Source: Pseudomonas deceptionensis (GTDB lineage: Bacteria; Pseudomonadota; Gammaproteobacteria; Pseudomonadales; Pseudomonadaceae). Taken from it: a stretch of 64,000 nucleotides of DNA. Under the pieces are notes generated by a model that had not been told where the DNA came from, made no database searches, and saw only the letters and a program-made list of their open reading frames with translations. The position numbers were made by a program, and so were the translations under genes. The stretch is taken from positions 2,625,501 through 2,689,500 of the forward strand of contig NZ_FNUD01000002.1 in NCBI RefSeq assembly GCF_900106095.1, given 5' to 3'. Positions 1-51,715 of the stretch are shown here, piece by piece. Each line of letters starts with the position of its first letter. Position 1 is the stretch's first letter.

Positions 1-1
1 G

Positions 2-838
2 TCATCTACCCAAGCGTGTTTAGATAACGCCTATGGTATAAGTAAAAACAAAGCAGAGAGGCTGTTGAAGGAACATTCGCAGTCAAGTGGTGCAACGGTA
101 CTGATTTACCGGTTGCCTAATGTATTTGGGAAGTGGTCGCGCCCCAATTATAATTCTGCGGTTGCTACTTTTTGCCATAACATTGCCCGTGATTTACCCA
201 TTACAGTCAATGATCCCAGTGCAAAGATTGATCTGGTCTATATAGATGATGTTGTTGAAGAGTTTGTGAGTGCTATGAGGTCCAATATGACGGGGCTTCA
301 TCAGTTAAGTATTGATGCCCACTACCAAACGACTGTGGGTGCACTTGCGGAGCAGATTCAGGCCTATAAAGACTCGCGTGTGACATTGGTGACCGAGAGA
401 GTGGGGGCTGGGCTTTGCCGAGCTCTTTATTCTACGTATTTGAGTTTTATTCCATCAGATAAATTTTCTTACTCTGTCAAAAAGTATGAAGACCCTCGAG
501 GTGTTTTTGTTGAGGTCCTAAAAACCAAAGATTCCGGGCAGTTTTCATATTTTACGGCTCACCCAGGTGTTATCCGTGGGGGACATTATCACCATACAAA
601 AACAGAAAAATTCCTTGTTGTCAAAGGCAATGCCTGTTTCAGGTTTCGACACATTGTGACCAATGAATATTATGAATTGTTTACGGATGGTGCTGTTCCG
701 GAAATTGTAGAAACAGTGCCAGGCTGGACTCATGACATCGTCAATGTAGGGGATGATGAGATGTTGGTAATGCTCTGGGCCAATGAGATTTTTGACCGTT
801 CCCGGCCTGATACCTATACATCGCAGACCGTTAATTAA
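2..838 (+). CDS. wbjC: WbjC/CapF-type UDP-sugar 4-reductase with C-terminal cupin, 5' truncated by window edge
   Basis: The reading frame is open to the left edge, so the gene starts outside the window. The frame contains an SDR catalytic YxxxK signature (Tyr codon at 32, Lys codon at 44), followed by the substrate-binding half of an SDR (RLPNVFGKW, then VYIDDVVEEF). The last ~110 residues form a cupin with a GGHYHHTK metal-binding His cluster and a WTHDI motif. This SDR-cupin arrangement is that of WbjC/CapF/FnlB, which makes UDP-2-acetamido-2,6-dideoxy-L-talose on the way to UDP-L-FucNAc. The next gene is the epimerase of the same pathway, which supports the call. A TTG at 65 is internal and not a real start. 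Confidence 0.88.
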   Translation, partial: SSTQACLDNAYGISKNKAERLLKEHSQSSGATVLIYRLPNVFGKWSRPNYNSAVATFCHNIARDLPITVNDPSAKIDLVYIDDVVEEFVSAMRSNMTGLHQLSIDAHYQTTVGALAEQIQAYKDSRVTLVTERVGAGLCRALYSTYLSFIPSDKFSYSVKKYEDPRGVFVEVLKTKDSGQFSYFTAHPGVIRGGHYHHTKTEKFLVVKGNACFRFRHIVTNEYYELFTDGAVPEIVETVPGWTHDIVNVGDDEMLVMLWANEIFDRSRPDTYTSQTVN

Positions 839-865
839 GTGGTTTTTGGCAGTCATAAGGCACAC

Positions 866-1996
866 ATGAAAAAATTAAAAGTCGTTACTGTTGTTGGTAC
901 ACGCCCCGAGATCATTCGTCTCTCTCGTGTAATTGCACGACTTGATGAACATTGCGAACACGTGTTAGTTCACACGGGGCAAAATTATGATTATGAACTC
1001 AACCAGATTTTTTTCGACGATTTAGGTATCCGCAAACCGGACCATTTTTTAAATGCAGCAGGTCAAAGCGGTGCTGAAACTATCGGGAATGTGATCATTG
1101 CGGTTGATCGTATGCTCGCGGAGGTTGAGCCCGAAGCGCTGTTGGTGTTGGGTGACACGAATAGCTGCATGGCAGTCATTCCTGCCAAACGCCGTAAGAT
1201 TCCCATCTTTCACATGGAAGCCGGTAATCGCTGTTTTGACATGCGAGTACCAGAGGAAATCAATCGTCGCATTGTTGACCACACGGCCGATATTAATCTT
1301 ACGTACAGCACGATTGCCCGCAATTACTTGTTGAGAGAGGGATTGTCTCCGGACATGGTAATTAAAACTGGTAGCCCGATGTTTGAGGTCCTGAACTATT
1401 ACCGTACGGCCATTGAAGCGTCTGATATATTGAGTCGATTACATCTTGAGTCTGGAAAGTTTTTCACGGTCAGTGCCCATCGTGAAGAAAATATCGACTC
1501 GGATAAAAACTTTACAAATCTTGTCTCTGTACTTAACGCTTTGGCTGAAACTTACAACTTGCCTGTTATTGTGTCTACCCATCCACGTACGCAAAAACGT
1601 GTTGATGCCATGGGGGTAAAGTTTCACCCAAATGTACGATTGCTCAAGCCACTAGGGTTCATGGATTATAACAAACTGCAACTGACGTCCAAAACGGTAC
1701 TGTCGGACAGTGGTACTATCAATGAAGAGTCGTCTATCCTCAATTTCCCGGCACTTAATCTAAGGGAAGCTCATGAGCGTCCAGAAGGTATGGAAGAGTC
1801 TGCGGTCATGATGGTGGGCCTTGATGTAGAACGTGTGATGCAGGCGCTCAGCATACTGCAAAGTCAGGGGCGCGGTGATGAGCGCACGTTGCGCCTTGTT
1901 GAAGACTATAGCGTGCCTAATGTTTCAGAGAAGGTTGTGCGGATCATTCATAGTTACAGGGACTATGTAATGCGTTCTGTTTGGAAAAGGTACTGA
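866..1996 (+). CDS. wbjD: UDP-2-acetamido-2,6-dideoxy-L-talose 2-epimerase (WbjD/FnlC/CapG)
   Basis: The 376-residue product belongs to the non-hydrolysing UDP-GlcNAc 2-epimerase superfamily. It shows VGTRPEIIRLSR near the N terminus, HMEAGNRCFD with RVPEEINRR in the middle, HREENID, and the SDSGTINEES nucleotide-binding loop near residue 285. EAGNRCFD is typical of the WbjD/FnlC branch rather than WecB. The enzyme performs the final step to UDP-L-FucNAc. I chose the ATG at 866, which has AAGG six bases upstream; the frame is open to a GTG at 839, directly after the wbjC stop. The following transferase gene starts five bases after the stop, so the three genes are probably one transcript. Confidence 0.9.
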   Translation: MKKLKVVTVVGTRPEIIRLSRVIARLDEHCEHVLVHTGQNYDYELNQIFFDDLGIRKPDHFLNAAGQSGAETIGNVIIAVDRMLAEVEPEALLVLGDTNSCMAVIPAKRRKIPIFHMEAGNRCFDMRVPEEINRRIVDHTADINLTYSTIARNYLLREGLSPDMVIKTGSPMFEVLNYYRTAIEASDILSRLHLESGKFFTVSAHREENIDSDKNFTNLVSVLNALAETYNLPVIVSTHPRTQKRVDAMGVKFHPNVRLLKPLGFMDYNKLQLTSKTVLSDSGTINEESSILNFPALNLREAHERPEGMEESAVMMVGLDVERVMQALSILQSQGRGDERTLRLVEDYSVPNVSEKVVRIIHSYRDYVMRSVWKRY

Positions 1997-2001
1997 TTGA
2001 T

Positions 2002-3219
2002 ATGGCAGTTCGCGTTTTGTTGATGACTCAATGGTTCGACCCAGAGCCCACATTCAAGGGTATTGTTTTTGCTCGAGAGCTCGCTCGTCAGGGGTTTGAA
2101 GTCGAGGTCATTACCGGGTTTCCAAATTACCCAGGTGGTAAGTTATACCCCGGTTATAAAATGAAGTTGTGTCAAAAAGAACAAATTGATGGTGTCAACA
2201 TAACGCGGGTTCCATTGTACCCTAGCCATGATAAAGGCAAAATTGGAAGAGTTCTGAATTATGTGACTTTTTCGATATCGTTGATGTTGTACGGTCTTTT
2301 TGCGAAAAAAGCCGATGTCATTTATTCTTACCACCCTCCTTTGACGGTTGGCATCGCTGCCGCTATTGTCGGTTTTTTTCGTCGCGTACCTGTAGTTAAT
2401 GATGTCCAGGACATGTGGCCTGATACCCTAAGTTCGACGGGAATGGTTTCAAATAAACGTGTACTTTCGCTAGTAGGGAAAGTTTGCGACTGGGTATATA
2501 AGCGGTCTGCGAAAATTGTTGTGCTCTCGCCAGGATTCAAAACACTTTTAGTCGAGCGTGGCGTACCGGCTGAAAAAATTGAAATCATTTATAATTGGTG
2601 CGCTGAGGATGCCATCAATCAATCGCAGAACGTTGAGCAGTCTGTTTTTAAAGCGGACGGAAAATTTCGGATATTGTTTGCCGGAAATATGGGGCTTGCG
2701 CAGGCATTGGATGTTGTATTGGATGCCGCCGCTCTGGTGTCAGCCCAGGTGCCAGAAATTGAATTTGTCTTCTTGGGTGGGGGGCTGGAGGTGGAAAACC
2801 TCAAGCGCTTGTCGCAGGAACGAGCACTTAATAACGTTGTTTTCTTGCCTCCCGTTTCAATGGCTGAGGTAGGGCTGTATTTATATTCGGCAGATGCCTT
2901 GCTGGTTCATCTTAAAGAAGATGACTTATTCAAGATAACCATTCCTTCGAAAACTCAGGCTTATATGGCTGCGGGAAGGCCGATACTGATGGCTGTTGAC
3001 GGCAATGCGGCCGATTTGGTGAGTAGCAGCCAAAGTGGTGTGGTTGCCAAGTCTGGTAACGCAACTTCTGTAGCGGATGCTGCAATTCAGTTGTTTCGTG
3101 CCTCAGACACTGAACGTGCGGCAATGGGTGAAAATGGAATAGCGTTCTATAAAAGTCATCTTTCCTTGGTGCGGGGTGTTGAGAAATTCGGCTCGATTTT
3201 CAAGTTGTTGGCCAATTGA
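2002..3219 (+). CDS. GT4-family glycosyltransferase, WbuB-like (probable L-FucNAc transferase)
   Basis: The 405-residue protein has a GT-B fold pattern: an N-terminal TQWFDPEPTFKG loop as in WbuB-like enzymes, a hydrophobic stretch around residues 85-130, VNDVQDMWPD, and a C-terminal donor domain with ILFAGNMGLAQ and the E..LVHLK..D region. In fnl/wbj clusters this gene follows the 2-epimerase and is thought to transfer L-FucNAc, so linkage to wbjC-wbjD supports that donor. I used the ATG at 2002; an in-frame TTG at 1981 lies inside wbjD. Acceptor and linkage cannot be read from sequence. It acts on the cytoplasmic face of the membrane on undecaprenyl-linked sugar. Confidence 0.8.
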   Translation: MAVRVLLMTQWFDPEPTFKGIVFARELARQGFEVEVITGFPNYPGGKLYPGYKMKLCQKEQIDGVNITRVPLYPSHDKGKIGRVLNYVTFSISLMLYGLFAKKADVIYSYHPPLTVGIAAAIVGFFRRVPVVNDVQDMWPDTLSSTGMVSNKRVLSLVGKVCDWVYKRSAKIVVLSPGFKTLLVERGVPAEKIEIIYNWCAEDAINQSQNVEQSVFKADGKFRILFAGNMGLAQALDVVLDAAALVSAQVPEIEFVFLGGGLEVENLKRLSQERALNNVVFLPPVSMAEVGLYLYSADALLVHLKEDDLFKITIPSKTQAYMAAGRPILMAVDGNAADLVSSSQSGVVAKSGNATSVADAAIQLFRASDTERAAMGENGIAFYKSHLSLVRGVEKFGSIFKLLAN

Positions 3220-3415
3220 TAGTATTTGACTTAGGCGTGCAAGGGTTTCTAGCAAGAGACAGTACTCAATGCTGTGTTCAATATACATCTTAATGATTAT
3301 GCTGATTTGAAATAGCTGAGAGGGGAAATGGTTCCGGTGATTGTCAAGAATGGCCCAAGCCTTTCAGGATAATGGCGTTAACTGAATTTCCTGTTAGGTT
3401 TGATAAATTTGAGTA
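3220..3415. other. Intergenic gap, nothing recognised
   Basis: This gap of about 195 bases separates the WbuB-like gene from the PglC-like gene. It is A+T rich. I see no convincing terminator, RNA or open frame in it. It may hold a promoter for the downstream genes, but no clear -35/-10 pair stands out. Confidence 0.4.
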
Positions 3416-4060
3416 ATGAGGAATTGTGCATTGAAACGCGTATTTGATATAGTTATTGCACTTTTAGGCTTGGTTGTACTGCTACCTGTCTTGGCCGTTG
3501 TGTCAATCTTGATTCGCGTAAAGCTTGGAGGACCTGTTTTTTTTACTCAGCTTCGGCCAGGCCTGAATGGTAAACCCTTCAAAATGATCAAATTCAGAAC
3601 GATGAGGGATGCTGTAGACCAAAATGGGGTTATTCTTCCTGATGCGGATAGGATGACAGCGTTTGGTCGAACATTGAGGTCTACAAGCCTTGATGAGCTT
3701 CCGGAGCTTCTGAACGTTTTGAAGGGTGACATGAGTTTGGTTGGCCCACGGCCTCTGCTGATACAGTATCTCCCCCTGTATTCTCCAGAACAAAATCGTC
3801 GCCATGAGGTGCGGCCCGGCATTACAGGTTGGGCTCAGGTCAATGGACGAAATGCACTTAGCTGGGATGAGAAATTCAAGCTTGATACCTGGTATGTCGA
3901 TAATCAGTCTTTATTATTGGACCTGAAGATATTGTTTCTCACGGTTAAAAAAGTACTTGTGAGGGAGGGCATATCGCAAGAAAATAATGCAACGATGGAA
4001 GCCTTCACAGGATCCATAGTTTTAGAACACAAAATCTCAAGTGATAGGAAACAATTATGA
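3416..4060 (+). CDS. PglC-type monotopic phosphoglycosyl transferase (initiating sugar-1-phosphate transferase)
   Basis: The protein is a bacterial sugar transferase of the short PglC class: one N-terminal hydrophobic re-entrant helix (about residues 8-35), GPVFFTQLRPG, FKMIKFRTM, the catalytic Asp-Glu pair in SLDELPELLNV, KGDMSLVGPRPLL, and RPGITGWAQVNGRN. The match to Campylobacter PglC continues through the C-terminal tail. It would transfer a sugar-1-phosphate from a UDP-sugar to undecaprenyl phosphate and so start the glycan. Together with WbpM, the DegT aminotransferase and the PglD-like acyltransferase, this suggests a bacillosamine-type first sugar. Start: ATG 3416 is given here, but TTG 3431 has AGGA eight bases upstream and yields the usual MKRVFDI N-terminus, so it may be the true start. 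Confidence 0.88.
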   Translation: MRNCALKRVFDIVIALLGLVVLLPVLAVVSILIRVKLGGPVFFTQLRPGLNGKPFKMIKFRTMRDAVDQNGVILPDADRMTAFGRTLRSTSLDELPELLNVLKGDMSLVGPRPLLIQYLPLYSPEQNRRHEVRPGITGWAQVNGRNALSWDEKFKLDTWYVDNQSLLLDLKILFLTVKKVLVREGISQENNATMEAFTGSIVLEHKISSDRKQL

Positions 4061-4263
4061 GCGATACAATTTTGCGTTTGATTGAAGAATCGATGGAAGC
4101 GGATGAAAATACGATTTCTCTTGGTCAGCCATTAGACTGGGATTCCATTGCAATCGTAACTTTTATGGCTTTGGTTGATGAGCGTCTTAATAAGACAATT
4201 TCTGCAGATCGCCTGAATAAGTGTGAGACCGTAGATCAGGTTGTAGAGTTACTGGCAGCTTGA
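4057..4263 (+). CDS. Small acyl carrier protein
   Basis: The 68-residue acidic protein carries the DWDSIAIVTF motif; Ser30 is the expected 4'-phosphopantetheine site. Predicted helices before and after this serine fit a four-helix carrier protein, slightly shorter than AcpP. Its ATG overlaps the stop of the PglC-like gene (ATGA at 4057-4060), so translation is probably coupled. It sits beside two KASIII-like synthases and a FabG-like reductase, so it most likely carries a dedicated short acyl chain used to decorate a sugar rather than serving general lipid synthesis. The cargo is an inference. Confidence 0.85.
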   Translation: MSDTILRLIEESMEADENTISLGQPLDWDSIAIVTFMALVDERLNKTISADRLNKCETVDQVVELLAA

Positions 4264-4295
4264 CTATAAGTCTGTGCGGGCTGTCGATGTATTAG

Positions 4296-4322
4296 TGCTC
4301 AACTGGATGTGTCAGTTGAGCA
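4296..4322 (+). terminator. Strong hairpin after the ACP gene
   Basis: A 10-bp perfect inverted repeat (TGCTCAACTG and CAGTTGAGCA) has a 7-base loop and is followed by a moderately T-rich stretch. It lies 32 bases after the ACP stop and about 100 bases before the Rieske gene. It could terminate or attenuate the upstream transcript, or protect its 3' end. Confidence 0.55.
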
Positions 4323-4423
4323 TTTGCATTTCTGGCTGATGTGCATCAGTGCAGTGTCGGTGAGTATTCACAGCATGCTTGATATATTTTTTGAGCGTGC
4401 GGTGCCAAGAGGGCGTATTGAGT

Positions 4424-5455
4424 ATGGGTGCTTTGGATTCTGTTAAAATATCTGATGATTTGATCAGGTCGTATTGGCACCCCATTGGGCATAAGTCAGA
4501 ACTCGCTAATGATCGGGATTATGTCAGGTTTGAGATCAAGGATTTCGAAGTTGTTATTATCAATGATAAAGGGAGTTTTGTCGCGTTTGATAACCTTTGC
4601 CCGCACAGAGGTGCGCGTTTTTTTACCGATGATTTTGGCAACAGTATCGTAAAGTGTCTCTATCACGGCTGGAGCTATTCGCGTGGCAAAGTAAACGTAG
4701 CAGGCATAAAAACCTTTCAGGGGTGTGGTATTGAACATGCTGCCCTAAAAGAATTTCATTTAGAGGCGTACGGTGATTTTTTATTTTTCGCGATTGATCC
4801 AAAGACGAGTTTGTCAGAACAATTAGGTCCGGAGATATCTTCGGTTCTGCAAAAAGTTGGCGGTGATATTGATTCCTGTGCAGACTTCAATCGATATCCT
4901 TTTCAATGTGATTGGACTATCGCTTTAGAGAATGCTTTAGAACCCTATCATATACCATTAATACATTCGGATACTTTGGCAACGCTGCAGTTAGGTATTG
5001 GTGTTAATGAGTTTTTCGGTGAGAATTCTATTTGGTATTCGCCTGTTGAAAATGAGAAGGTAGAGAAGCGTCTTAAAAGTTTAAATCGATTTTATGCGAC
5101 TACGGACCCTTATCCTGGGTATATGAGTATTTTTCTTTTTCCGTTTTCCATGATCTCCTCAACGTTCGGATACTCTTATTCGGTTCAAAATTTTTTTCCT
5201 TCGACTTCGATCGATAGTACTTTCTTCACTAGTCGCCTTTATCCTGCAAAAAATAGTGACCCTCGGTACAAAGAAATGACATCGGGTTTTGTGCAATCCA
5301 GTGCCGATATTAATAGAAAGATTTTTGAGGAGGATCATCAGATTTGCAGGCGGATTCCAAGTAAGTCGTGGTCAACATCGGCGCCTAAATTTACTAGTAC
5401 TCTCGAACAAAAATTGCTCCATTTCCGGGCATCTTGTGAAAAGTGGAATAAATAG
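4424..5455 (+). CDS. Rieske non-heme iron oxygenase (ring-hydroxylating dioxygenase alpha-subunit-like)
   Basis: The 343-residue protein has an N-terminal Rieske [2Fe-2S] domain with CPHRGAR (Cys59, His61) and CLYHGWSY (Cys78, His81). The catalytic domain shows NALEPYHIPLIH, giving His176 and His181 as mononuclear iron ligands with Glu173 in the bridging acidic position. It is therefore probably an active oxygenase, but no reductase or ferredoxin partner is encoded nearby. The ATG at 4424 follows GAGGG by about ten bases; the frame extends upstream to a TTG at 4379. The gene is among the most A+T-rich here. Position between the ACP and a KASIII gene suggests that it hydroxylates or otherwise oxidises the acyl chain or the sugar; the substrate is unknown. 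Confidence 0.85.
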   Translation: MGALDSVKISDDLIRSYWHPIGHKSELANDRDYVRFEIKDFEVVIINDKGSFVAFDNLCPHRGARFFTDDFGNSIVKCLYHGWSYSRGKVNVAGIKTFQGCGIEHAALKEFHLEAYGDFLFFAIDPKTSLSEQLGPEISSVLQKVGGDIDSCADFNRYPFQCDWTIALENALEPYHIPLIHSDTLATLQLGIGVNEFFGENSIWYSPVENEKVEKRLKSLNRFYATTDPYPGYMSIFLFPFSMISSTFGYSYSVQNFFPSTSIDSTFFTSRLYPAKNSDPRYKEMTSGFVQSSADINRKIFEEDHQICRRIPSKSWSTSAPKFTSTLEQKLLHFRASCEKWNK

Positions 5456-5504
5456 TCATCTTTGATTTATTATGAATCTGCAGTGTTTGGAATAGGAGAG
5501 TGGA

Positions 5505-6587
5505 ATGACATCCAATAATCAAGTTCGATGGGTCAAAAATGTTCGAATTAAAGGGCTCGCCTGTGCCTTGCCTGAAAAGGTAGAGGAGGTGGCGTCCTTG
5601 AGCGAAGTTTTTGGCGCCGACAATATCAATAAAATTATTGGTAGTACAGGAGTTGAACGCCGCCACGTCGTCTTGGATGAATGCTCTTCTGATCTGTGTT
5701 TTTCTGCAGCAGAGCGACTCATTGTAGATCTCGGAATTGATAAAAGCTCTATTGATACCCTGATATTCGTTTCACAAACCCATGACTACACGCTCCCGGC
5801 TACAGCCTGTGTTTTGCAGAAACGACTAGGCCTGCCCATGCACACGGCTGCGTTTGATGTCGCCATGGGGTGTTCAGGATATGTATACGGACTGTGGATG
5901 GCTGCCTCTTTGTTGTCTGGCGGTGGCAGCAAGCGCGCGCTTTTATTGGTAGGCGATACTATCAGCAAGATCGTTTCCCCTGATGACAGGGCTGTAGCTG
6001 CCTTATTTGGAGATGCAGGCACAGCAACTCTTATTGACCATGATACGGACGCTCCTGCTATTCCATTTGTCATGGGCACGGATGGGCGTGGAGCACAGAA
6101 TCTGGTAGTCCCTGCAGGTGGTTATAGAGACCGCAGCGGTAAATCTGTGCAAACGAGTGAAGAGGGCGTTCGGGGGCCATATGATTTGTACATGAATGGG
6201 GCTGAAATTTTCGCATTCACTCTCGCTCGCGTTCCTGCTCTAGTGAGTGCTCTGCACGAGGCTAACCAAGAAAGTGGGGAAGCCATTGACAAATATGTGT
6301 TCCATCAAGCTAACCGTTTCATGCTCGATCACCTGGTAAAAAGAATGAAGCTCGAGCGAGAGAAGGTGGTGCTTGATGTCAAGGATGTTGGTAATACAAG
6401 TTGCGCCTCGATTCCATTGGCGATCAGTTTGCACAAGGGCAAGATGGGCGGACATATTTCCGGTCGTTTTATGCTTGCAGGCTTTGGTGTCGGTTATTCG
6501 TGGGCAGGTTGTGTTGCTGAGTTTGATAATGTGTGGATCAGCCCTTTGACTGTAACTCCAAGCATCAGCGCAGGGACCGCTATATGA
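5505..6587 (+). CDS. KASIII (FabH)-like 3-oxoacyl-ACP synthase, copy A
   Basis: The 360-residue thiolase-fold protein keeps the full KASIII triad: Cys123 in MGCSGYVYG, His267 in FHQANRFM, and Asn297 in VGNTSC. The C-terminal GFGVGYSWAG glycine-rich loop is also present. Such enzymes condense acetyl-CoA (or another acyl-CoA) with malonyl-ACP to give a 3-oxoacyl-ACP. An AGGAGAG ribosome site precedes the ATG by a few bases. Its stop overlaps the next start (ATGA at 6584-6587), coupling it to the reductase. With the ACP and reductase it can make a 3-hydroxyacyl-ACP, for example 3-hydroxybutyryl; the chain identity is inferred. Confidence 0.88.
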   Translation: MTSNNQVRWVKNVRIKGLACALPEKVEEVASLSEVFGADNINKIIGSTGVERRHVVLDECSSDLCFSAAERLIVDLGIDKSSIDTLIFVSQTHDYTLPATACVLQKRLGLPMHTAAFDVAMGCSGYVYGLWMAASLLSGGGSKRALLLVGDTISKIVSPDDRAVAALFGDAGTATLIDHDTDAPAIPFVMGTDGRGAQNLVVPAGGYRDRSGKSVQTSEEGVRGPYDLYMNGAEIFAFTLARVPALVSALHEANQESGEAIDKYVFHQANRFMLDHLVKRMKLEREKVVLDVKDVGNTSCASIPLAISLHKGKMGGHISGRFMLAGFGVGYSWAGCVAEFDNVWISPLTVTPSISAGTAI

Positions 6588-7345
6588 CGCAGTTCAATCC
6601 TTTTTCCTTGTCTGGCAAGCATGTTCTGGTTACCGGCGCTTCTTCTGGCATCGGACGTGAGGTTGCCATATGGCTCAGCAAGCAGGGAGCGACGGTTACT
6701 TTGGCTGCACGGGATGTAAGTCGTCTCGAGGCAACACTTGTGAGGATGGACGGTATTGGCCATAGACTCGAGGTTATTGATTTCCTGGGAGGTACTGACG
6801 TGCCTCAATGGTTGAAGTCGGTAGCCAAGATGTCTTCGCCCTTTGATGGCCTGGTGCATGCCGCCGGCGTGCAAATGCCGATGCCTATTCGTGCTACCAG
6901 CATGGGTCATTGGGAAAAAATAATGTCGACAAATGTCACCTCCGGGTTTTCATTGATAAAGGCATTTCGTCAAAAAGGTGTTTGTAACCCCGATTCAAGT
7001 ATTGTTCTGATTTCTTCAGTAATGGCTCAATCCGGAGAGCCGGCTTTGCTTGGCTATTGCGCCAGTAAAGGCGCTGTTGAAGCCATGGTCAGGGCCGCAG
7101 CTGTTGAGTTGGCTCGCGAAGGGATTCGTGTCAACGCAATTGCTCCTGGCGTTGTCCAGACTGAGCTCGTTGACGCTTTGGAGAGCCTTGTTGGTTCTGA
7201 TTCTATGAAGGCAATCGAGCAGCGGCATCCATTGGGCTTTGGCAAGGCTCAAGACGTTGCCTATGCCGCGAATTATTTATTGTCCCCGGCTGCCAGTTGG
7301 GTTACGGGCACCACTTTGGTTGTTGATGGGGGATACCTGGCATGA
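6584..7345 (+). CDS. FabG-like short-chain dehydrogenase/reductase (3-oxoacyl-ACP reductase)
   Basis: The 253-residue classical SDR has TGASSGIG at residues 17-24 for NADP(H), a catalytic Ser in LISSVMAQSG, Tyr158 and Lys162 in YCASK, and the C-terminal VTGTTLVVDGGY typical of FabG-like enzymes. The ATG at 6584 overlaps the KASIII stop; the longer frame to 6533 would add an unlikely tail. Expected role: reduce the 3-oxoacyl-ACP formed by the neighbouring KASIII enzymes to a 3-hydroxyacyl-ACP. It also overlaps the next gene by an ATGA, so this trio is tightly coupled. Action on a sugar keto group instead cannot be excluded. Confidence 0.85.
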   Translation: MTQFNPFSLSGKHVLVTGASSGIGREVAIWLSKQGATVTLAARDVSRLEATLVRMDGIGHRLEVIDFLGGTDVPQWLKSVAKMSSPFDGLVHAAGVQMPMPIRATSMGHWEKIMSTNVTSGFSLIKAFRQKGVCNPDSSIVLISSVMAQSGEPALLGYCASKGAVEAMVRAAAVELAREGIRVNAIAPGVVQTELVDALESLVGSDSMKAIEQRHPLGFGKAQDVAYAANYLLSPAASWVTGTTLVVDGGYLA

Positions 7346-8007
7346 CTACGACCAAGAAGCTGGTCATCATGGGGGCTGGAGGTTTTGGTCGTGAGGTTCA
7401 TGCCTGGCTCTTGGACTCGATCAAAAATGGTGCCTGCAGAGCCACAAGTGAAACTGTCTGGGAAATCGCCGGTTTTATTGATGATGTCAGCAATGCGCCC
7501 GATATCTTTTCCGGATTGCCGCCGATCTTGTCAAAAATTGATGGGTACATTCCTGAACCCGATACCTATGTTGTTTGTGCGATTGCCAACCCAGCAGCAA
7601 AAAAGCTGTTGACTGAAAAGTTGGTAGCCAAAGGGGTTGAATTTTTTACACTTATTCACTCAACTGTCGTGATTGGAACCAACGTAGTGATTGGCAAGGG
7701 AGCTGTCATTTGCCCGTTCACTGTATTGTCCACGGATCTTAGTGTGGGTGATTTTGTGACCATCAACTCGGGTTGTACCATCGGGCACGATGCACGGATC
7801 GCAGATTACTGCACGTTGAGTGGCCACTGTGATGTTACCGGTGGTGTGACATTGCAAGAGGGCGCTTTTCTAGGCTCGCACGCAGTCATTGTGCCTAAAG
7901 TTGTGGTCGGGGAATATTCGGTCGTGGGCGCAGGTAGCGTGGTGATAAGAAAAGTCGCACCGGGTGTGACAGTTTTTGGTGTTCCAGCCAAACGTATTTC
8001 GGGATAA
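7342..8007 (+). CDS. PglD/NeuD-type left-handed beta-helix sugar N-acyltransferase
   Basis: The 221-residue protein has the Rossmann-like N-terminal half of the NeuD/PglD family (VIMGAGGFGREV) and hexapeptide repeats from about residue 105 (VVIGTNVVIGKGAVI and following). His149 in CTIGHDARI aligns with the catalytic His of PglD, and the protein ends with the family's GVPAKRI. PglD acetylates the 4-amino group of UDP-4-amino sugars with acetyl-CoA. Here the flanking ACP, KASIII and reductase genes suggest the donor is an acyl-ACP. It overlaps the reductase stop by an ATGA, and the next gene starts four bases after its stop. Confidence 0.86.
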   Translation: MTTTKKLVIMGAGGFGREVHAWLLDSIKNGACRATSETVWEIAGFIDDVSNAPDIFSGLPPILSKIDGYIPEPDTYVVCAIANPAAKKLLTEKLVAKGVEFFTLIHSTVVIGTNVVIGKGAVICPFTVLSTDLSVGDFVTINSGCTIGHDARIADYCTLSGHCDVTGGVTLQEGAFLGSHAVIVPKVVVGEYSVVGAGSVVIRKVAPGVTVFGVPAKRISG

Positions 8008-8011
8008 ATAT

Positions 8012-9028
8012 ATGAACCAGTCCGCCAAAATTACTGCTATCGAATACGTGTTGCCTGCACAAACCCTGTCGAATGAAGATTTGGAGCGTGATTTTCCTGA
8101 GTGGAATGTGGACAAGATTTTCGGCAAGACCGGTATTAATAAGCGTCAAGTAGTCGGGGTTAACGAATGCGCCTCCGATTTGGCTTTTAAGGCATGCGAA
8201 AAGCTGATTGACGCCGTGGACCTTGACCGCTCTGATATTGACTTTATTATCCTGTGTACGCAAAGTCCTGATTATTTTTTACCGGCAACAGCTTGCATTC
8301 TCCAAGACCGTTTGGGGCTTTCAACGCGATGTGGTGCCTTTGATTTTAATCAGGGATGTTCCGGCTTCGTTTATGGTTTGGGCTTGGCCAAAGGTTTGAT
8401 CGAAACCGGTCAGGCTAAAAACATTTTGTTGGTGACTGCGGATACTTATAGCAAATATATTCACCCAGCAGATAAAAGTGTTCGTACCTTGTTTGGTGAT
8501 GCCGCTGCAGCCACTTTGATTCAGGCTGTGGCCAGTGGCCCTTTTATCGATCGCTTCCGTTATGGTACTGATGGAGCCGGTGCTAAAAATCTAATAGTGC
8601 CAATTGGCGGCGCGCGCAGTCCTTCAGCGTTGAATCCATCGCCTGAACTGTACGCGGATGATAGCGGTAACGCTCGAACAGACGCTAACCTGTATATGAA
8701 CGGAGCCGCCATATTTGAGTTCTCGATGACTCGAATCCCACAGCTTATGGCATCGATGTTCGACGACTCGTTCTCGATTGACGATGTTGACTTGTTTGCA
8801 TTTCATCAGGCCAACAAGTTTATGCTTGACTCCTTGCGCCGTCGGTTGAAGTTGCCGGCTGAAAAATTTATTTCCGAATTCGAGCACTGTGGTAACACAG
8901 TGTCATCGAGCATTCCTATCGCCCTGAAAGAATCACTAGATAAAGGTGTGTTATCCGTAGGAAATACTGTCGTTTGTGTTGGTTTTGGCGTGGGATATTC
9001 TTGGGCAGGATGTGTAATCAAGTGGTAA
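8012..9028 (+). CDS. KASIII (FabH)-like 3-oxoacyl-ACP synthase, copy B
   Basis: The 338-residue second KASIII-like protein is related to, but clearly diverged from, the one at 5505. The catalytic residues are intact: Cys116 in NQGCSGFVYG, His265 in FHQANKFM, and Asn295 in CGNTVSSS. The C-terminal VGFGVGYSWAG is conserved. The ATG at 8012 follows the acyltransferase stop by four bases; the frame open to 7976 lies inside that gene. Two active synthases could give two chain lengths, use two starter CoAs, or form a heteromer. It probably ends the coupled block, since a 49-base gap precedes the aminotransferase. Confidence 0.86.
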   Translation: MNQSAKITAIEYVLPAQTLSNEDLERDFPEWNVDKIFGKTGINKRQVVGVNECASDLAFKACEKLIDAVDLDRSDIDFIILCTQSPDYFLPATACILQDRLGLSTRCGAFDFNQGCSGFVYGLGLAKGLIETGQAKNILLVTADTYSKYIHPADKSVRTLFGDAAAATLIQAVASGPFIDRFRYGTDGAGAKNLIVPIGGARSPSALNPSPELYADDSGNARTDANLYMNGAAIFEFSMTRIPQLMASMFDDSFSIDDVDLFAFHQANKFMLDSLRRRLKLPAEKFISEFEHCGNTVSSSIPIALKESLDKGVLSVGNTVVCVGFGVGYSWAGCVIKW

Positions 9029-9077
9029 ATATGCTTGGGTAACCATTTATTTTCAGTGTTTCCGTAGGGGTTATTCT

Positions 9078-10256
9078 GTGCTGAATACTAAATTTTCTCC
9101 TTGGCCTTCTTTCACCGAAGAAGAAGCCAATGCTGCTCGCGATGTCATCTTGTCGAACAAGGTCAACTACTGGACAGGCCAGGAAACGCGCTCTTTCGAG
9201 AAAGAGTTCGCCGAGTGGTCGGGTGCTGAATATGCCGTTGCCCTGGCCAATGGCACCGTTGCCCTGGACTTGGCGTTGAAAGCGCTAGGAATAGGGGCAG
9301 GAGATGAGGTGGTTGTTACGTCCCGCACGTTCCTGGCGTCGGTTTCCAGTATCGTTAATGCCGGTGCAGTACCCGTGTTTGCCGATGTTGATCTGGACTC
9401 GCAAAATTTCACAGCGCAAACGATCCGAGCTGTTTTGACGCCACGTACCAAGGCTCTGATCTGTGTTCATTTGGCAGGATGGCCATGTGATATGGATCCG
9501 ATCATGGCACTGGCCGATGAGCATGGCCTGAAAGTGATTGAAGATTGTGCCCAGGCTCACGGTGCGTTCTATAAAGGTCGGCCGGTCGGTTCTATTGGTC
9601 ATATTGGTGCCTGGTCATTCTGTCAGGACAAGATCATGACCACTGGAGGTGAGGGCGGTATGGTCACCACCAATGATCGCCAGCTTTGGGCTGATATGTG
9701 GGCCTATAAAGACCACGGCAAGAGCTGGGAAGCCGTGTATGAGCGTGAGCACGCACCAGGTTTTCGTTGGCTGCATGAAAGTTTTGGTACTAACTGGCGG
9801 ATGCTTGAAGTTCAGGCCGTCATTGGTCGGATTCAATTGCGTCGAATGCAGGACTGGCACCTTGCTCGCTTGGATAATGCACAGGCCATCTGGAAAACGG
9901 CTCAGCAGCTCCCGGCGCTGCGTGTTCCCGTATTGCCTGACAATGAGGTACACGCTGCTTATAAGTGTTATGTATTTGTTCGGCCTGAATGCCTGAAGCA
10001 GGATTGGTCCCGGGATCGTATTCTCAATGAAATTATCGCTCGGGGTGTGCCGGCCTTTTCCGGCTCATGCTCTGAGGTTTATCTGGAAAAGGCTTTCGAC
10101 AATACCGGCTGGCGGCCGGCGCAACGCTTGGTAAATGCGAGAGAGTTGGGCGACACGAGCATGATGTTTATGGTTCATCCTACATTGACCGCGCAAGAGA
10201 TCGAGTTGACCTGCAAGGTAATCAGTGAGGTTGTTCAGGAAGCTTCGTTGATGTGA
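9078..10256 (+). CDS. DegT/DnrJ/EryC1/StrS PLP-dependent sugar aminotransferase (PglE-like)
   Basis: The 392-residue sugar aminotransferase starts at a GTG with GGGG seven bases upstream. The family features are ALANGTVALDLAL near residue 55, VVVTSRTFLASVSS, EDCAQAHGA, and the PLP lysine Lys185 in FCQDKIMTTGGEGGM. Such enzymes transfer an amino group to a 4-keto-6-deoxy UDP-sugar. Together with WbpM (dehydratase) and the PglD-like acyltransferase this gives UDP-2-acetamido-4-acylamino-2,4,6-trideoxy-hexose, i.e. a bacillosamine-type sugar. C3 versus C4 amination cannot be decided from sequence, but the PglC/PglD company favours C4. Base composition already approaches that of the core genes. 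Confidence 0.85.
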   Translation: MLNTKFSPWPSFTEEEANAARDVILSNKVNYWTGQETRSFEKEFAEWSGAEYAVALANGTVALDLALKALGIGAGDEVVVTSRTFLASVSSIVNAGAVPVFADVDLDSQNFTAQTIRAVLTPRTKALICVHLAGWPCDMDPIMALADEHGLKVIEDCAQAHGAFYKGRPVGSIGHIGAWSFCQDKIMTTGGEGGMVTTNDRQLWADMWAYKDHGKSWEAVYEREHAPGFRWLHESFGTNWRMLEVQAVIGRIQLRRMQDWHLARLDNAQAIWKTAQQLPALRVPVLPDNEVHAAYKCYVFVRPECLKQDWSRDRILNEIIARGVPAFSGSCSEVYLEKAFDNTGWRPAQRLVNARELGDTSMMFMVHPTLTAQEIELTCKVISEVVQEASLM

Positions 10257-10341
10257 GGTGTAACCTTGCAGTAACGGGATGGGGCATTGGGCTGTAGAGT
10301 GTTGATGGTTTTTAGAGCAGCAAAAGGTGTTCAAGGGATTT

Positions 10342-12339
10342 ATGGATAAAATTCGAGCGTACTTACTCAACCTTTCGCGGCGGCAAAAACGCGTTATACA
10401 GGTCACCACGGATATAGTGCTCGTTTGGCTTGCCTTGTGGCTGGCATTCGGCGTACGCCTGGGCATTGACGAGATGGTCAACCCTGTCAAATTGCATTTT
10501 TGGCTATTTGTCTCCGCCCCAATTGTAGCCATCCCCTTTTTCATCCGTTTCGGCATGTACCGCGCCGTCATGCGCTATTTTGGCAACGACGCCCTGATCG
10601 CAATCATCAAGGCTGTCAGTCTGTCTTCGCTTGTCCTGGCCGTGGTGATGTACTGGTACAGCACCCCTGAGATCGCCGTACCGCGCTCGATCATTTTCAA
10701 CTACTGGTGGCTGAGCCTGATCATGCTCGGCGGTTTGCGCCTGGCCATGCGTCAATACTTCTTGGGTGATTGGTTTGCCGCTGCCCAGCATGTGCCATTC
10801 ACTAACCGTGATGACGGTCTGCCGCGCGTGGCCATTTACGGTGCAGGGGCAGCTGGTAATCAATTGGTTGCTGCATTACGTATGGGCCGTGCCATGCGGC
10901 CCGTGGCGTTTATTGATGACGATGAGAGCATTGCTGATCGCATCATTTCAGGATTGCAGGTTTACAAGCCCGAGCACATTCAGCAGATGATCGAGCGTAC
11001 GGGTGCGCAGGAGTTGCTATTGGCGATCCCTTCTTCATCCCGCGGTCGTCGTCGTGAGATTTTGGGTTTGCTTGAAGGGTTTCCGCTCCACGTTCGCAGT
11101 GTCCCAGGCTTTATGGACTTGGCCAGCGGACGGGTCAAGGTTGACGATATTCAGGAAGTGGATATTGCCGATTTGCTGGGCCGTGATGCGGTACCCGCGC
11201 AAGGAGAGTTGCTGGAGCATTGTATAAAAGGCCAGTGCGTCCTGGTGACGGGTGCCGGCGGGTCTATTGGTTCAGAGCTGTGTCGTCAGATTTTGCAACT
11301 GGGGCCGACAACTTTGCTGCTGTTCGATCACAGCGAGTTTAACCTGTACAGCATTCTTGGTGAGCTGGAGCAGCGGGTTAATCGCGAGTCGCTTTCAGTA
11401 AAGGTGTTGCCGATTTTGGGCTCGGTGCGTAACCCGCACAAGTTGCTGGATGTGATGAAGACCTGGCGTGTCGATACGGTCTATCACGCTGCGGCCTACA
11501 AGCACGTGCCAATGGTTGAGCACAATATTGCCGAAGGCGTGCTTAACAACGTTATTGGCACGCTCAATACCGCCCAGGCTGCCTTGCAGTCGGGTGTGGC
11601 CAACTTTGTGCTGATCTCTACTGACAAGGCTGTACGGCCGACCAATGTGATGGGCAGTACCAAGCGCCTGGCCGAGATGACGCTCCAGGCACTTAGTCGA
11701 GAAGTGGCTCCGGTGTTGTTTGGTGATGCTGCCAATGTCTCGCGGGTTAATAAAACCCGCTTCACTATGGTTCGTTTTGGCAATGTGCTGGGCTCTTCGG
11801 GCTCGGTGATTCCACTCTTTCACAAACAGATCAAGGCCGGTGGGCCGTTGACTGTGACGCACCCCAAGATCACCCGTTACTTCATGACTATCCCCGAGGC
11901 GGCGCAACTAGTGATTCAAGCCGGCTCCATGGGCCAGGGCGGTGATGTGTTTGTTCTTGATATGGGTGAGCCTGTTCGTATTGTCGAACTGGCGGAGAAG
12001 ATGATTCACCTTTCCGGTTTGAGCGTGCGCTCGGAAAAAAACTTGCATGGCGATATCGAGATCGAGTTCACAGGCCTGCGCCCCGGTGAAAAGCTTTACG
12101 AAGAGTTGCTGATTGGTGACAACGTAGTAGCGACACGGCATCCGATGATCATGTGCGCTAATGAAGACCTTTTGTCCTGGGATGAGCTCAAGCAACGCCT
12201 GTCGCATTTGCTTGAGGCTGTTGATCAGGATGACTACGTAAGGGTTCGCCAACTGTTGCGCGATACCGTCAGTGGTTATGCCCCCGAGGGCGAAATTGTG
12301 GACTGGATCCATCAGCAGCGTCGTAGCGACTTATCGTGA
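10342..12339 (+). CDS. wbpM: WbpM-type UDP-GlcNAc 4,6-dehydratase (membrane-bound, PglF family)
   Basis: The 665-residue product equals P. aeruginosa WbpM in length. Four hydrophobic segments fill about residues 20-140, followed by a CoA-binding-like Rossmann domain (YGAGAAGNQLVAAL) and a C-terminal SDR domain with VTGAGGSIGSEL. The dehydratase signature STDKAVRPTNVMGSTKR has Met in place of the usual catalytic Tyr, as in the SMK triad of this family. The reaction turns UDP-GlcNAc into UDP-2-acetamido-2,6-dideoxy-4-hexulose, precursor of FucNAc, QuiNAc and bacillosamine. I preferred ATG 10342 because it gives the WbpM N terminus (MDKIRAYLL); a GTG at 10327 would add five residues. In Pseudomonas wbpM commonly closes the O-antigen locus. 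Confidence 0.93.
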   Translation: MDKIRAYLLNLSRRQKRVIQVTTDIVLVWLALWLAFGVRLGIDEMVNPVKLHFWLFVSAPIVAIPFFIRFGMYRAVMRYFGNDALIAIIKAVSLSSLVLAVVMYWYSTPEIAVPRSIIFNYWWLSLIMLGGLRLAMRQYFLGDWFAAAQHVPFTNRDDGLPRVAIYGAGAAGNQLVAALRMGRAMRPVAFIDDDESIADRIISGLQVYKPEHIQQMIERTGAQELLLAIPSSSRGRRREILGLLEGFPLHVRSVPGFMDLASGRVKVDDIQEVDIADLLGRDAVPAQGELLEHCIKGQCVLVTGAGGSIGSELCRQILQLGPTTLLLFDHSEFNLYSILGELEQRVNRESLSVKVLPILGSVRNPHKLLDVMKTWRVDTVYHAAAYKHVPMVEHNIAEGVLNNVIGTLNTAQAALQSGVANFVLISTDKAVRPTNVMGSTKRLAEMTLQALSREVAPVLFGDAANVSRVNKTRFTMVRFGNVLGSSGSVIPLFHKQIKAGGPLTVTHPKITRYFMTIPEAAQLVIQAGSMGQGGDVFVLDMGEPVRIVELAEKMIHLSGLSVRSEKNLHGDIEIEFTGLRPGEKLYEELLIGDNVVATRHPMIMCANEDLLSWDELKQRLSHLLEAVDQDDYVRVRQLLRDTVSGYAPEGEIVDWIHQQRRSDLS

Positions 12340-46253: not shown

Positions 46254-47231
46254 TTACTCGGCTGCCTTGGCGTCATCGCCGTGGGACAGGCTGTAAACGT
46301 AGGCGGCCAGCAAGTGAACCTTGTCATTCCCTTGCATGTCAGCCTGTGCAGGCATCTGGCCCTGACGGCCGTAACGGATGGTCTGCTGCAGTTGAGCGAA
46401 GCTCGAACCGTAGATGAATGCCCCTGGGTGGGTCAGGTCAGGTGCGCCCATCAGAGGGTTGCCCTTGCCTTCAGGCCCGTGGCAAACCGAACAGTTGGTG
46501 GCGAAGATTTCCTTGCCTTTGGCAGGGTCGGCCTTCGCGCCTTCTGGCAGTTTGCGGCCATCGAGGTTGGTGAGCACGTAGGCAGCGACGTCGCTGACGC
46601 CTTGCTCGCCAATCACTTCAGACCAGCCCGGCATTACAGCGTGACGACCATTCATGATGGTGGTCTTGATGTCTGCCGGCGTACCGCCCCAGCGCCAGTC
46701 GGCGTCGGTCAGGTTCGGGAAGCCATAAGCGCCCTTGGCGTCGGAACCGTGGCACACGGAACAGTTGGACGCGAACAGACGGCCACCCATTTTCAGTGCT
46801 TGCGGATCCTTGGCGACTTCTTCAATGGGCATGGCTGCGAATTTGGCGAAGATCGGCCCAAATTTGGCGTCCGATTTGGCCATTTCCTTTTCCCACTCGT
46901 GAACGCCGGTCCAGCCTGACTGGCCATTGGCAAACGGAGTTTGCTCTTTGGTGTCCAGGTACTGATAGCCCGGCAGCAGGCCTTTCCAGTTACCCAGGCC
47001 CGGGTACAGAACGAGGTAGCCAAGGGCGAAAATGACGGTGCCGACAAACAGCATGAACCACCATTTCGGCATCGGGTTGTCGTACTCTTCGATCCCATCG
47101 AAAGCGTGCCCGACTTTCTCGTCGGTCTGCTCGCTGCGCTGGCCCTTGCGTGTGGCCAGCAGCAGCCAGGTCAAGGCGAAGATGGTACCCAGAGTGAGGA
47201 CTGTAACGTACAGACTCCAGAATGTAGTCAT
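46254..47231 (-). CDS. ccoP: cbb3 cytochrome c oxidase subunit III (diheme), CcoP1
   Basis: The 325-residue diheme cytochrome c subunit has two N-terminal membrane segments (residues 4-26 and 55-77) and two CSVCH heme c sites with downstream Met ligands (AVMPGW, GQMPAQ). It receives electrons from soluble cytochromes and feeds CcoO. ATGA overlap with ccoQ1 indicates coupling. The second copy at 49955 is clearly related but shorter in the linker (the [18 protein letters not shown] segment is missing there). Confidence 0.96.
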
Positions 47232-47419
47232 TCTTTGTTACTCCTAGAAGCTTGCTCTTGCTCGACGTGCTTGATGGCTTCGGGATCATCCTTGAACGGC
47301 AACAAGGTAGCGTCGTCAAACTCAGACTTGCGTCGCGGGCTGAAAACCCACAATGCCAAACCGATAAAAGCCACCATCACGACGACGGTGCCCAGGCCTC
47401 GAATCATCCCGATATCCAT
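47228..47419 (-). CDS. ccoQ: cbb3 oxidase small subunit CcoQ1
   Basis: The 63-residue single-helix protein ([21 protein letters not shown], then [15 protein letters not shown]) is the CcoQ type, which stabilises CcoP in the complex. It lies between ccoO1 and ccoP1 and overlaps ccoP1 by four bases. The C-terminal half is nearly identical to CcoQ2. Confidence 0.93.
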
Positions 47420-47424
47420 CTAGA

Positions 47425-48033
47425 TCACCGTTTGCTTTTGATGATGGTGCCCAAGCCCTGGAGGTAAGCCACCAGTGCGTCCATTTCGGTTTTGCCCTTC
47501 ACAGCATCCTTGGCACCGGCGATGTCTTCGTCGGTGTAAGGAACGCCGAGCTTGCGCAAGACTTCCATTTTTTTCGCCGTATCCTTGCCGTCGAGCTTGC
47601 GCTCTACGAGGAAGGGATACGCCGGCATGATCGACTCAGGCACTACGTTGCGCGGGTTGTACAAGTGCGCACGCTGCCAGTCATCGGAGTAGCGGCCGCC
47701 GACGCGGGCCAGGTCCGGGCCGGTACGCTTGGAACCCCACAGGAACGGGTGGTCCCAGACGCTTTCACCGGCAACCGAGTAGTGGCCGTAGCGTTCGGTT
47801 TCGGCGCGGAACGGACGAATCATCTGCGAGTGGCAACCGACACAGCCGTTGGCGATGTAGATATCGCGACCTTCAAGCTCCAGCGCGCTGCGAGGCTTCA
47901 TGCCCTCAACCGGGGTGTTGGTCACGTCCTGGAAGAACAGCGGAACGATTTGGGTCAGGCCGCCAATACTGACAGCGATGACCATGAAGAAGGCCATCAG
48001 GCCAATATTCTTCTCGATTGTTTCGTGCTTCAT
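47425..48033 (-). CDS. ccoO: cbb3 cytochrome c oxidase subunit II (monoheme), CcoO1
   Basis: The 202-residue subunit has one N-terminal membrane helix ([20 protein letters not shown]) and a heme c site CVGCHSQ, with a distal Met in PESIMPAYP. It carries electrons from CcoP to CcoN. It overlaps ccoN1 by one base. Confidence 0.95.
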
Positions 48034-49475: not shown

Positions 49476-49559
49476 TCTAAGGTTCCACGGTTTAGGTGTT
49501 TTATTAGGATAAAAATCGGTCGCAAGTATGTATAAAGCGTAGGGTTATTGCAACGAAGC

Positions 49560-49573
49560 ATGACCCCGGTCAA
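49560..49573 (-). promoter_or_regulatory. Anr-like box upstream of ccoN1
   Basis: TTGAC-CGGG-GTCAT on the minus strand keeps the dyad but departs from consensus at two outer positions, including the last base. It lies 85 bases before ccoN1. A weaker match than that of ccoN2 would fit a less oxygen-dependent first operon. Confidence 0.55.
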
Positions 49574-49875
49574 TGCTTTCCAAGGCTGATTCTGCGGCCT
49601 TTCCATGCGGGTAGTAAGGTCAAAGTGACCTCGCCAAAAATGCCGAATGGAGGGCAAAACCGAAGGGGGTGAGGCGGGCAGATTCTGGTGGGGGTAGGGC
49701 GTGGCAAGAGCATGGCGAAGATCGCGATGGACGATAGCCGGTGTAAACCCACTAGTGTGGCCCGTAACAGTGCCCTTCAACTTACCGATTTTTTTCACTT
49801 GACGTGAAGCCGGGGGAGTCCCGAACACGCAAGTTAAGAGCTTAGTCCTGAATGGCGGGAGAGCAATGACGGACT

Positions 49876-49901
49876 AAAAAGAGGTGCGACACTTGGTCGC
49901 G
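49876..49901 (-). terminator. Hairpin downstream of ccoP2 (GTGCGAC...GGTCGC, copy 2)
   Basis: On the minus strand GCGAC and GTCGC pair over 5 bp with a 5-base loop, followed after six bases by T5. It lies just after the ccoP2 stop. Its core repeats the element in the ccoG leader (45337). Confidence 0.5.
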
Positions 49902-49954
49902 CTTTGGGGCGGGAACTGCCGCACCAAAATGATGCGACAGGAAATGTCTGGTAA

Positions 49955-51093: not shown

Positions 51094-51096
51094 GAC

Positions 51097-51705: not shown

Positions 51706-51715
51706 TGCCAACTCC

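What the first reader, a model, noticed from the sequence alone, without database searches (positions are those of the whole stretch)
3416..12339. Dedicated ACP-based acyl supply built into a bacillosamine-type sugar pathway
Seen: ACP, two KASIII-like synthases with intact Cys-His-Asn, a FabG-like reductase, a PglD/NeuD-type N-acyltransferase, a DegT aminotransferase, WbpM dehydratase and a PglC-like initiating transferase lie together, with four tight joins (ATGA overlaps at 4057, 6584 and 7342, a 4-base gap before 8012). Known: PglF/E/D/C make and transfer UDP-diNAc-bacillosamine using acetyl-CoA, and Pseudomonas glycans can carry N-(3-hydroxybutanoyl) groups. Inference: this block makes a hydroxyacyl-ACP and transfers it to the 4-amino group of the first sugar of the glycan.
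Basis: partly seen in the sequence, partly recalled or inferred. Interest (0 to 1): 0.78.

Follow-up and report, generated by a model that had tools for sequence, protein, structure and literature searches.

The report
Oxygenase-equipped acyl cassette for glycan sugars
Beside the genes that start a Pseudomonas O-antigen lies a small assembly line that appears to build a short hydroxylated fatty-acid-like group on a carrier protein and attach it to the first sugar, and it contains an oxygen-using iron-sulfur enzyme that I found linked to this job in no paper, although the same six genes recur across distant bacteria.

Summary
In detail: all eight named genes and four tight joins check out. The general idea (ACP-made hydroxyacyl put on the 4-amino group of UDP-QuiNAc4N) is well supported but already in print for relatives: P. 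syringae vioS/B/R/acp (3-hydroxybutanoyl) and F. psychrophilum wfpC-G (3,5-dihydroxyhexanoyl). Beyond that I find a conserved six-gene cassette of KAS2, ACP, KAS1, SDR, PglD and Rieske. Of 48 Rieske loci examined outside the window, 44 have exactly one KAS1 and one KAS2; the other four are cut by contig ends. They come mostly from Pseudomonas and Burkholderiales, with a few from other phyla, in O-antigen and flagellin-glycan loci. Of 298 genomes of the genus, 11 have KAS2: 5 with Rieske and KAS1, 6 with neither; the KAS2 tree needs at least two switches. Best reading: one KAS gives a C4 hydroxyacyl, two give a C6 dihydroxyacyl, and Rieske adds one oxidation. Product and site of oxidation are inferred, not shown.

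The parts
3416..4060 (+). PglC-like initiating sugar-phosphate transferase (214 aa)
   Evidence: PF02397 1.7e-67
4057..4263 (+). dedicated acyl carrier protein (68 aa), DSI phosphopantetheine serine
   Evidence: PF00550 above cut-off; TIGR00517 20.5 bits, far below its 70.45 cut-off; serine in 41 of 41 ACP rows aligned, from Rieske, one-KAS and divergent loci together
4424..5455 (+).
5505..6587 (+). KAS1: second KASIII-like ketosynthase; in the 298-genome genus sample seen only where the Rieske gene is
   Evidence: closest solved structure 4efi
6584..7345 (+). SDR, FabG-like 3-ketoacyl reductase (VioR/WfpF role)
7342..8007 (+). PglD/NeuD/VioB-type left-handed beta-helix N-acyltransferase
   Evidence: TIGR03570 above cut-off; PDB VioB 7txp best hit
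8012..9028 (+). KAS2: KASIII-like ketosynthase of the clade that holds the one-KAS (VioS-type) synthases
9078..10256 (+). DegT-type aminotransferase (PglE role)
   Evidence: PF01041 6.5e-90
10327..12339 (+). WbpM/PglF-type UDP-GlcNAc 4,6-dehydratase
   Evidence: PF02719 8.9e-125
839..1996 (+). WbjD-type UDP-GlcNAc 2-epimerase (L-FucNAc branch)
   Evidence: TIGR00236 above cut-off; context
1981..3219 (+). WbuB-like glycosyltransferase, probable L-FucNAc transferase
   Evidence: PF13579/PF00534; role by analogy with PMC6519341

Best explanation
The block 4057-9028 is one module that builds an N-acyl group. KAS2 condenses acetyl-CoA with malonyl on the dedicated ACP, the SDR reduces it to 3-hydroxybutanoyl-ACP, KAS1 extends this once more and the SDR reduces again, giving a 3,5-dihydroxyhexanoyl-type chain; the Rieske oxygenase then makes one O2-dependent oxidation (most simply a hydroxylation, giving a trihydroxyhexanoyl group), and PglD transfers the acyl to the 4-amino group of UDP-QuiNAc4N made by WbpM and DegT. 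The PglC-like enzyme starts the O-antigen repeat with that sugar. Shown here: gene content, intact catalytic residues, conserved gene set and the joint presence or absence of Rieske and KAS1. Inferred: chain length, order of steps, site and kind of oxidation, and use of a shared reductase encoded elsewhere.
For: (1) 44 of 48 Rieske loci outside the window carry exactly one KAS1 and one KAS2; the four exceptions (L048, L057, L073, L077) are cut by contig ends. Of those 44, ACP in 44, SDR in 43, PglD in 41, all six in 41, and 42 are on one strand within 9 kb; several are near-copies of one another, so 44 is not 44 independent cases. (2) KAS1 is one side of a branch, 45 of 45 rows, SH-aLRT 100 (quick tree). 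(3) Of 298 genomes of the genus, the window's included, 11 have KAS2: 5 with Rieske and KAS1, 6 with neither. The six one-KAS rows do not form one clade (p-AU 2.7e-7), so the state changed at least twice. In G182 against G184 (flanks 90-92% identical) Rieske and KAS1 are missing between ACP and SDR. (4) Product anchors: the one-KAS set gives 3-hydroxybutanoyl; a two-KAS set is assigned to 3,5-dihydroxyhexanoyl. (5) The sugar pathway varies (PglC/WbpM loci; flagellin islands) while the six genes stay together, so the acyl chain is the likely substrate. (6) The Rieske model is nearest to CntA, solved with carnitine, an aliphatic 3-hydroxy C4 acid (recalled chemistry).
Against: No chemical structure of a Rieske-cassette glycan turned up in my searches. 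No reductase gene was recognised among recurrent neighbours (by eye); candidates lie elsewhere in the genome. G182 lacks not two but five genes of the G184 island: three more (192, 282 and 236 aa) upstream of ACP are gone too; these three are in none of the 6 one-KAS loci and not in the window or L035-L037, so in the viosamine islands a change of acyl group cannot be pinned on Rieske+KAS1 alone. Two phylum-sample loci (L114, L115) have a single KAS that scores as KAS1 and no Rieske, so KAS1-like enzymes do exist without it. KAS1 could use a different starter. The F. psychrophilum figure legend mentions genes of unknown function that I could not read, so absence of an oxygenase there is unproven. 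L075 has a Rieske frame lacking cluster ligands. Distance correlations (0.85-0.92) are also expected from shared ancestry.
Confidence: 0.52

Rival explanations
1. Post-transfer hydroxylation: PglD first transfers the dihydroxyhexanoyl group and the Rieske enzyme then hydroxylates the N-acyl group on the nucleotide sugar, as animal CMP-Neu5Ac hydroxylase does on N-acetyl (recalled).
For: In the Burkholderiales order the Rieske gene is last, after PglD; no ACP-docking feature was demonstrated.
Against: In the Pseudomonas order it directly follows the ACP gene and precedes KAS1, and it occurs with different sugar pathways, which would demand a broad nucleotide-sugar substrate.
Confidence: 0.2
2. 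One reading: the block makes only 3-hydroxybutanoyl, with KAS1 redundant or a partner of KAS2, and the Rieske enzyme acts on something unrelated.
For: QuiNAc4N with 4-N-(3-hydroxybutanoyl) is reported repeatedly in O-antigens and capsules (passage in PMC8074265); the one-KAS set suffices for it on viosamine.
Against: KAS1 and Rieske are conserved, catalytically intact and present or absent together in the genus sample.
Confidence: 0.16
3. KAS1 uses an oxidised or non-acetyl starter produced with the help of the Rieske enzyme, so that oxidation comes before chain building.
For: KAS1 and Rieske are adjacent in the Pseudomonas order and occur together in all 44 uncut loci.
Against: No gene for a special starter recurs across all loci; the most frequent extra neighbours that I recognised were in 11 of 48.
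Confidence: 0.08

Closest known systems
VioS-VioB-VioR-ACP of the P. syringae viosamine island (PMC3927599)
   Same: ACP, KASIII, FabG-like reductase and PglD-type acyltransferase side by side, feeding a 4-amino-4,6-dideoxy sugar; synthases of six such one-KAS islands (identified by gene order and protein sizes) nest inside the KAS2 clade
   Different: one KAS only, no Rieske gene, dTDP-Qui4N on flagellin instead of UDP-QuiNAc4N starting an O-antigen
WfpC-WfpD-WfpE-WfpF-WfpG of the F. psychrophilum O-PS locus (PMC6519341)
   Same: two different KAS, ACP, reductase, PglD homologue, PglC homologue, PglE/F, FucNAc genes and a WbuB homologue in one O-antigen locus; 3,5-dihydroxyhexanoyl product by NMR
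   Different: the words oxygenase and Rieske do not occur in the main text; gene order is inferred from the gene letters; sequences were not compared here
CntA carnitine monooxygenase and GbcA-type Rieske oxygenases
   Different: far below the GbcA equivalog cut-off (59.2 against 670 bits); sits in an acyl cassette, no partner reductase beside it
PglF/E/D/C bacillosamine pathway of Campylobacter
   Same: dehydratase, aminotransferase, PglD-family acyltransferase, PglC-like transferase
   Different: acetyl-CoA and N-acetyl in Campylobacter; here an ACP-based acyl supply
CMP-Neu5Ac hydroxylase (recalled, no call)
   Same: Rieske-type enzyme that hydroxylates an N-acyl group of a sugar
   Different: animal enzyme, acts on CMP-sialic acid; no sequence comparison made

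Membership tests
Rieske non-heme iron oxygenase | [2Fe-2S] ligands C-x-H and C-x2-H | tested here: met
   C59 H61 C78 H81; 44 of 45 compared, invariant in the 31 rows of A1
Rieske non-heme iron oxygenase | two His plus carboxylate at the mononuclear iron, bridging acid | tested here: met
   H176, H181, E303/D304 in 45 of 45; acidic bridge E173 in 42 and D in 3 of 45
Rieske non-heme iron oxygenase | partner reductase | tested here: inconclusive
   none recognised in the cassette; 10 PF00175 places elsewhere in the genome
GbcA/CntA subfamily | curated equivalog score of GbcA | tested here: not met
   NF058607 59.2 bits against 670
VioS/B/R/ACP hydroxybutanoyl cassette | ACP, KASIII, reductase and PglD-type acyltransferase adjacent | tested here: met
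VioS/B/R/ACP hydroxybutanoyl cassette | single KAS | tested here: not met
   two KAS of different clades
WfpC-G type two-KAS cassette | two different KAS, ACP, reductase, PglD homologue in an O-antigen locus | tested here: met
   compared with passages of PMC6519341 only, not with its sequences
WfpC-G type two-KAS cassette | 3,5-dihydroxyhexanoyl product | not testable with these tools
   needs NMR or MS of the polysaccharide
NeuD/PglD/VioB sugar acyltransferase | TIGR03570 above cut-off | tested here: met
   184.8 bits against 160.8
NeuD/PglD/VioB sugar acyltransferase | acyl donor (acyl-ACP or acetyl-CoA) | not testable with these tools
   in vitro assay needed
CMP-Neu5Ac hydroxylase | sequence or fold kinship | not tested
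   recalled analogue only

The most novel reading that the evidence does not exclude
A widespread and undescribed O2-dependent tailoring step in bacterial surface-glycan assembly: a Rieske oxygenase that hydroxylates a carrier-bound (or sugar-bound) two-step polyketide which becomes an N-acyl group on O-antigen and flagellin sugars. Rieske enzymes of other subfamilies may have been recruited independently into acyl cassettes of nonulosonic-acid and flagellin loci (L112, L113, L117).
Probability: 0.45. Interest if true: 0.78.

Novelty: new variant of a known kind. Interest (0 to 1): 0.62.

Why it matters
If true, the number of KAS genes and the presence of the Rieske gene would let one read the N-acyl group of O-antigens and flagellin glycans from sequence (C4 hydroxy, C6 dihydroxy, C6 plus one oxygen). 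It would put an O2-requiring Rieske enzyme into surface-glycan assembly, suggest a function for ketosynthase structures whose entries name only a 3-oxoacyl synthase (4efi is identical to the KAS1 of the P. xenovorans LB400 cassette; 3gwa/3gwe is KAS2-type), and show how strains may change a surface antigen by gain or loss of small gene blocks.

Tried and rejected
A single-sequence Rieske scan of genome contigs found no confirmed relative; the alignment scan did. Paper searches for viosamine+flagellin+'acyl carrier protein'+Pseudomonas, Rieske+flagellin+glycosylation+3-oxoacyl and Rieske+pseudaminic acid returned no paper; Rieske+O-antigen+acyl carrier protein+aminotransferase returned one Xanthomonas genome paper, seen as listing only; a mixed search matched 174 papers, and none of the 12 listed holds Rieske together with bacillosamine, viosamine or QuiNAc4N by the printed counts. 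These searches cover an open-licence library only.

Mass lead, weak: Qui4N plus trihydroxyhexanoyl has residue mass 291.13 (the same arithmetic reproduces the 231 of demethylated mVio). A review gives 291.1 Da for the Burkholderia pseudomallei flagellin glycan, and a Rieske homologue of 47% identity bears that species' name (P0114). Against it: Neu5Ac has 291.10, the review speaks of acetyl, formic acid and possibly acetamidino groups, and I saw no gene context for P0114. I do not rely on it.

Corrected on re-check: I first took G182 and G184 to differ by Rieske+KAS1 alone; one search shows a second missing block of three genes upstream of ACP.

Positions that separate KAS1 from KAS2 (four at the thresholds used, one three residues after the catalytic Asn) did not tell substrate. 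No inverted repeat was found in 4040-4430. Passages of an Acinetobacter K-antigen review (PMC10320297) hold no 'acyl carrier'.

Limits: the 96-row KAS tree is the quick one, its careful search did not finish; the 23-row tree is the careful one. Of 67 loci I examined 48 (L035-L082); L083-L101, 20-28% identical over about half the protein, were dropped before counting. KAS1 and KAS2 were told apart by the higher phmmer score to the window's two proteins, with at least 120 bits. Distance correlations used 41 of 45 loci (L045, L049, L054 lack SDR or PglD, L058 dropped as near-copy); no control correlation with sugar genes was computed. In a sample of 299 genomes of the phylum the Rieske protein was found at 1e-40 only in the window's genome. 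KAS1 at 1e-60 was found in 7 of those 299; of the six other genomes, three loci hold a distant Rieske-like protein (L112, L113, L117) and three hold none (L114, L115, L116).
Full report
What is there. The window opens in the 3' half of an O-antigen locus of a Pseudomonas (genus by the kinship table and by contig G106:C68, which equals a P. lundensis record in length). Upstream in the same genome (ORFs; families) lie RmlC, a WecE-type transaminase and WbjC over their cut-offs, FnlA/WbjB and Wzx below theirs, and by eye RmlA, a hexapeptide transferase, a glycosyltransferase and a Wzy. The window continues with WbjD, a WbuB-like transferase, the block in question, WbpM and a ComEA-like ORF. G+C is 43-50% from 1 to 10000 and about 56-66% beyond 14000.

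A conserved six-gene set. A scan of the genome-contig collection with a Rieske alignment gave 67 loci. I examined 48 (L035-L082). With KAS proteins assigned by score, 44 of 48 have exactly one KAS1 and one KAS2; L048, L057, L073 and L077 are cut by contig ends. Of the 44, ACP was found in 44, SDR in 43, PglD in 41, all six in 41, and 42 lie on one strand within 9 kb. Two gene orders dominate: ACP-Rieske-KAS1-SDR-PglD-KAS2 in Pseudomonas, and KAS2-ACP-KAS1-SDR-PglD-Rieske in Burkholderiales. Outside these two groups the 44 include a Sphingomonas, a Methylopumilus MAG, an Acidobacteria MAG, an Epsilonproteobacteria MAG and two Prochlorococcus records. The loci were chosen by the Rieske gene alone, so the KAS pairing is not built in; several loci are close kin, so they are not independent.

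Same cassette, different sugars. Loci with PglC and WbpM homologues resemble the window (for example L035, L036, L037, L053, L059, L060, L066, L080, L082). Others look like flagellin-glycan islands: flagellin genes, found by motif, lie in L047, L050, L063, L064, L068, L072 and L075, and in P. xenovorans a flagellin gene lies about 10 kb from the Rieske gene (the same spacing for L046, L074 and L076 if the contigs are the same). In Pseudomonas the cassette also occupies islands beside 1173- to 1195-aa transferases like the published VioT. The shared element is the acyl machinery, not the sugar.

Joint presence and absence. In 298 genomes of the genus, the window's included, the Rieske protein is in 5 (1e-60) and KAS2 in 11 (1e-70). 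The same 5 have KAS1; the other 6 have ACP, SDR, PglD and KAS2 only. KAS1 is one side of a branch (45 of 45, quick tree). KAS2 of the six one-KAS islands falls among KAS2 of Rieske cassettes and is not one clade (AU p 2.7e-7). G182 and G184 carry the same island (flanks 90-92% identical); G182 lacks 2.3 kb with Rieske and KAS1 between ACP and SDR, and also 2.6 kb with three genes (192, 282 and 236 aa) upstream of ACP. Those three genes are in none of the six one-KAS loci, but they are also absent from the window and L035-L037 and from most other Rieske loci, so only the Rieske-KAS1 pairing holds throughout. In a sample of 299 genomes of the phylum the Rieske protein was found at 1e-40 only in the window's own genome, so the cassette is sparse. 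In that sample two loci hold a single KAS scoring as KAS1 with no Rieske (L114, L115), and three hold a distant Rieske-like protein inside an ACP/KAS/SDR cluster (L112, L113, L117).

Product anchors in print. P. syringae: vioS 338, vioB 213, vioR 253, acp 69 aa; deletion of vioR, and in earlier work vioA, vioB or vioT, removes the modified viosamine (PMC3927599, abstract and two of four parts of the text read). F. psychrophilum: PglC homologue wfpB, two KAS wfpC and wfpE, ACP wfpD, reductase wfpF, PglD homologue wfpG, genes for L-FucNAc and a WbuB homologue; NMR shows 4-N-(3,5-dihydroxyhexanoyl)-QuiNAc4N (PMC6519341, abstract and passages). A 3,5-dihydroxyhexanoyl group is also reported for V. 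cholerae O3 and O100 (PMC8074265 passage).

Mechanism. One KAS gives a C4 hydroxyacyl and two KAS a C6 dihydroxyacyl; the Rieske enzyme, in the genus sample present only with KAS1, would then act on the C6 chain. Hydroxylation is the simplest outcome; desaturation or keto formation is not excluded. Predicted QuiNAc4N-acyl residue masses: 272.14 (C4), 316.16 (C6), 332.16 (C6+O). Chain length, order of steps and regiochemistry are inference.

Solved structures. PDB 4efi is identical over its full 354 residues to KAS1 of the P. xenovorans LB400 cassette, and 3gwa/3gwe is KAS2-type; the entries name only a 3-oxoacyl synthase.

Verdict. The Rieske-containing six-gene variant, its spread and its pairing with KAS1 are what is new as far as my ten paper searches of an open-licence library show.

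Noticed in passing
L112 6510-7619, L113 8402-9490, L117 12457-13821: Distant Rieske-like proteins (22-29% identity) lie inside ACP/KAS/SDR clusters of a nonulosonic-acid-type locus (by eye) and of two loci with flagellin genes, suggesting repeated recruitment of Rieske enzymes to glycan acyl cassettes.
   Followed up: partly
L026 12973-15242, and relatives in L027, L038-L042, L046, L058, L074-L076, L078: A 282-aa protein of phytanoyl-CoA-dioxygenase look and a 192-aa methyltransferase-like protein, often with a 236-aa one, recur beside viosamine-type and Paraburkholderia cassettes and are absent from the six one-KAS loci; names by eye.
   Followed up: partly
L032 12845-14823: A transposase-like ORF and a second acyltransferase-like ORF lie between the ACP gene and the reductase in one one-KAS viosamine island.
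   Followed up: no
L004 10667-13952: rmlA (by eye), rmlC, a WecE-type transaminase (620.9 bits against 375) and a hexapeptide transferase (by eye) suggest a dTDP-Fuc4NAc-like sugar as a further residue of the repeat.
   Followed up: partly
L075 10222-11076: In a Paraburkholderia symbiont MAG the open Rieske frame lacks the iron-sulfur ligands, so the copy looks broken.
   Followed up: no
window 46254-53140: Two similar sets of cbb3-type cytochrome oxidase genes lie in tandem (by eye); I recall this as usual in Pseudomonas.
   Followed up: no
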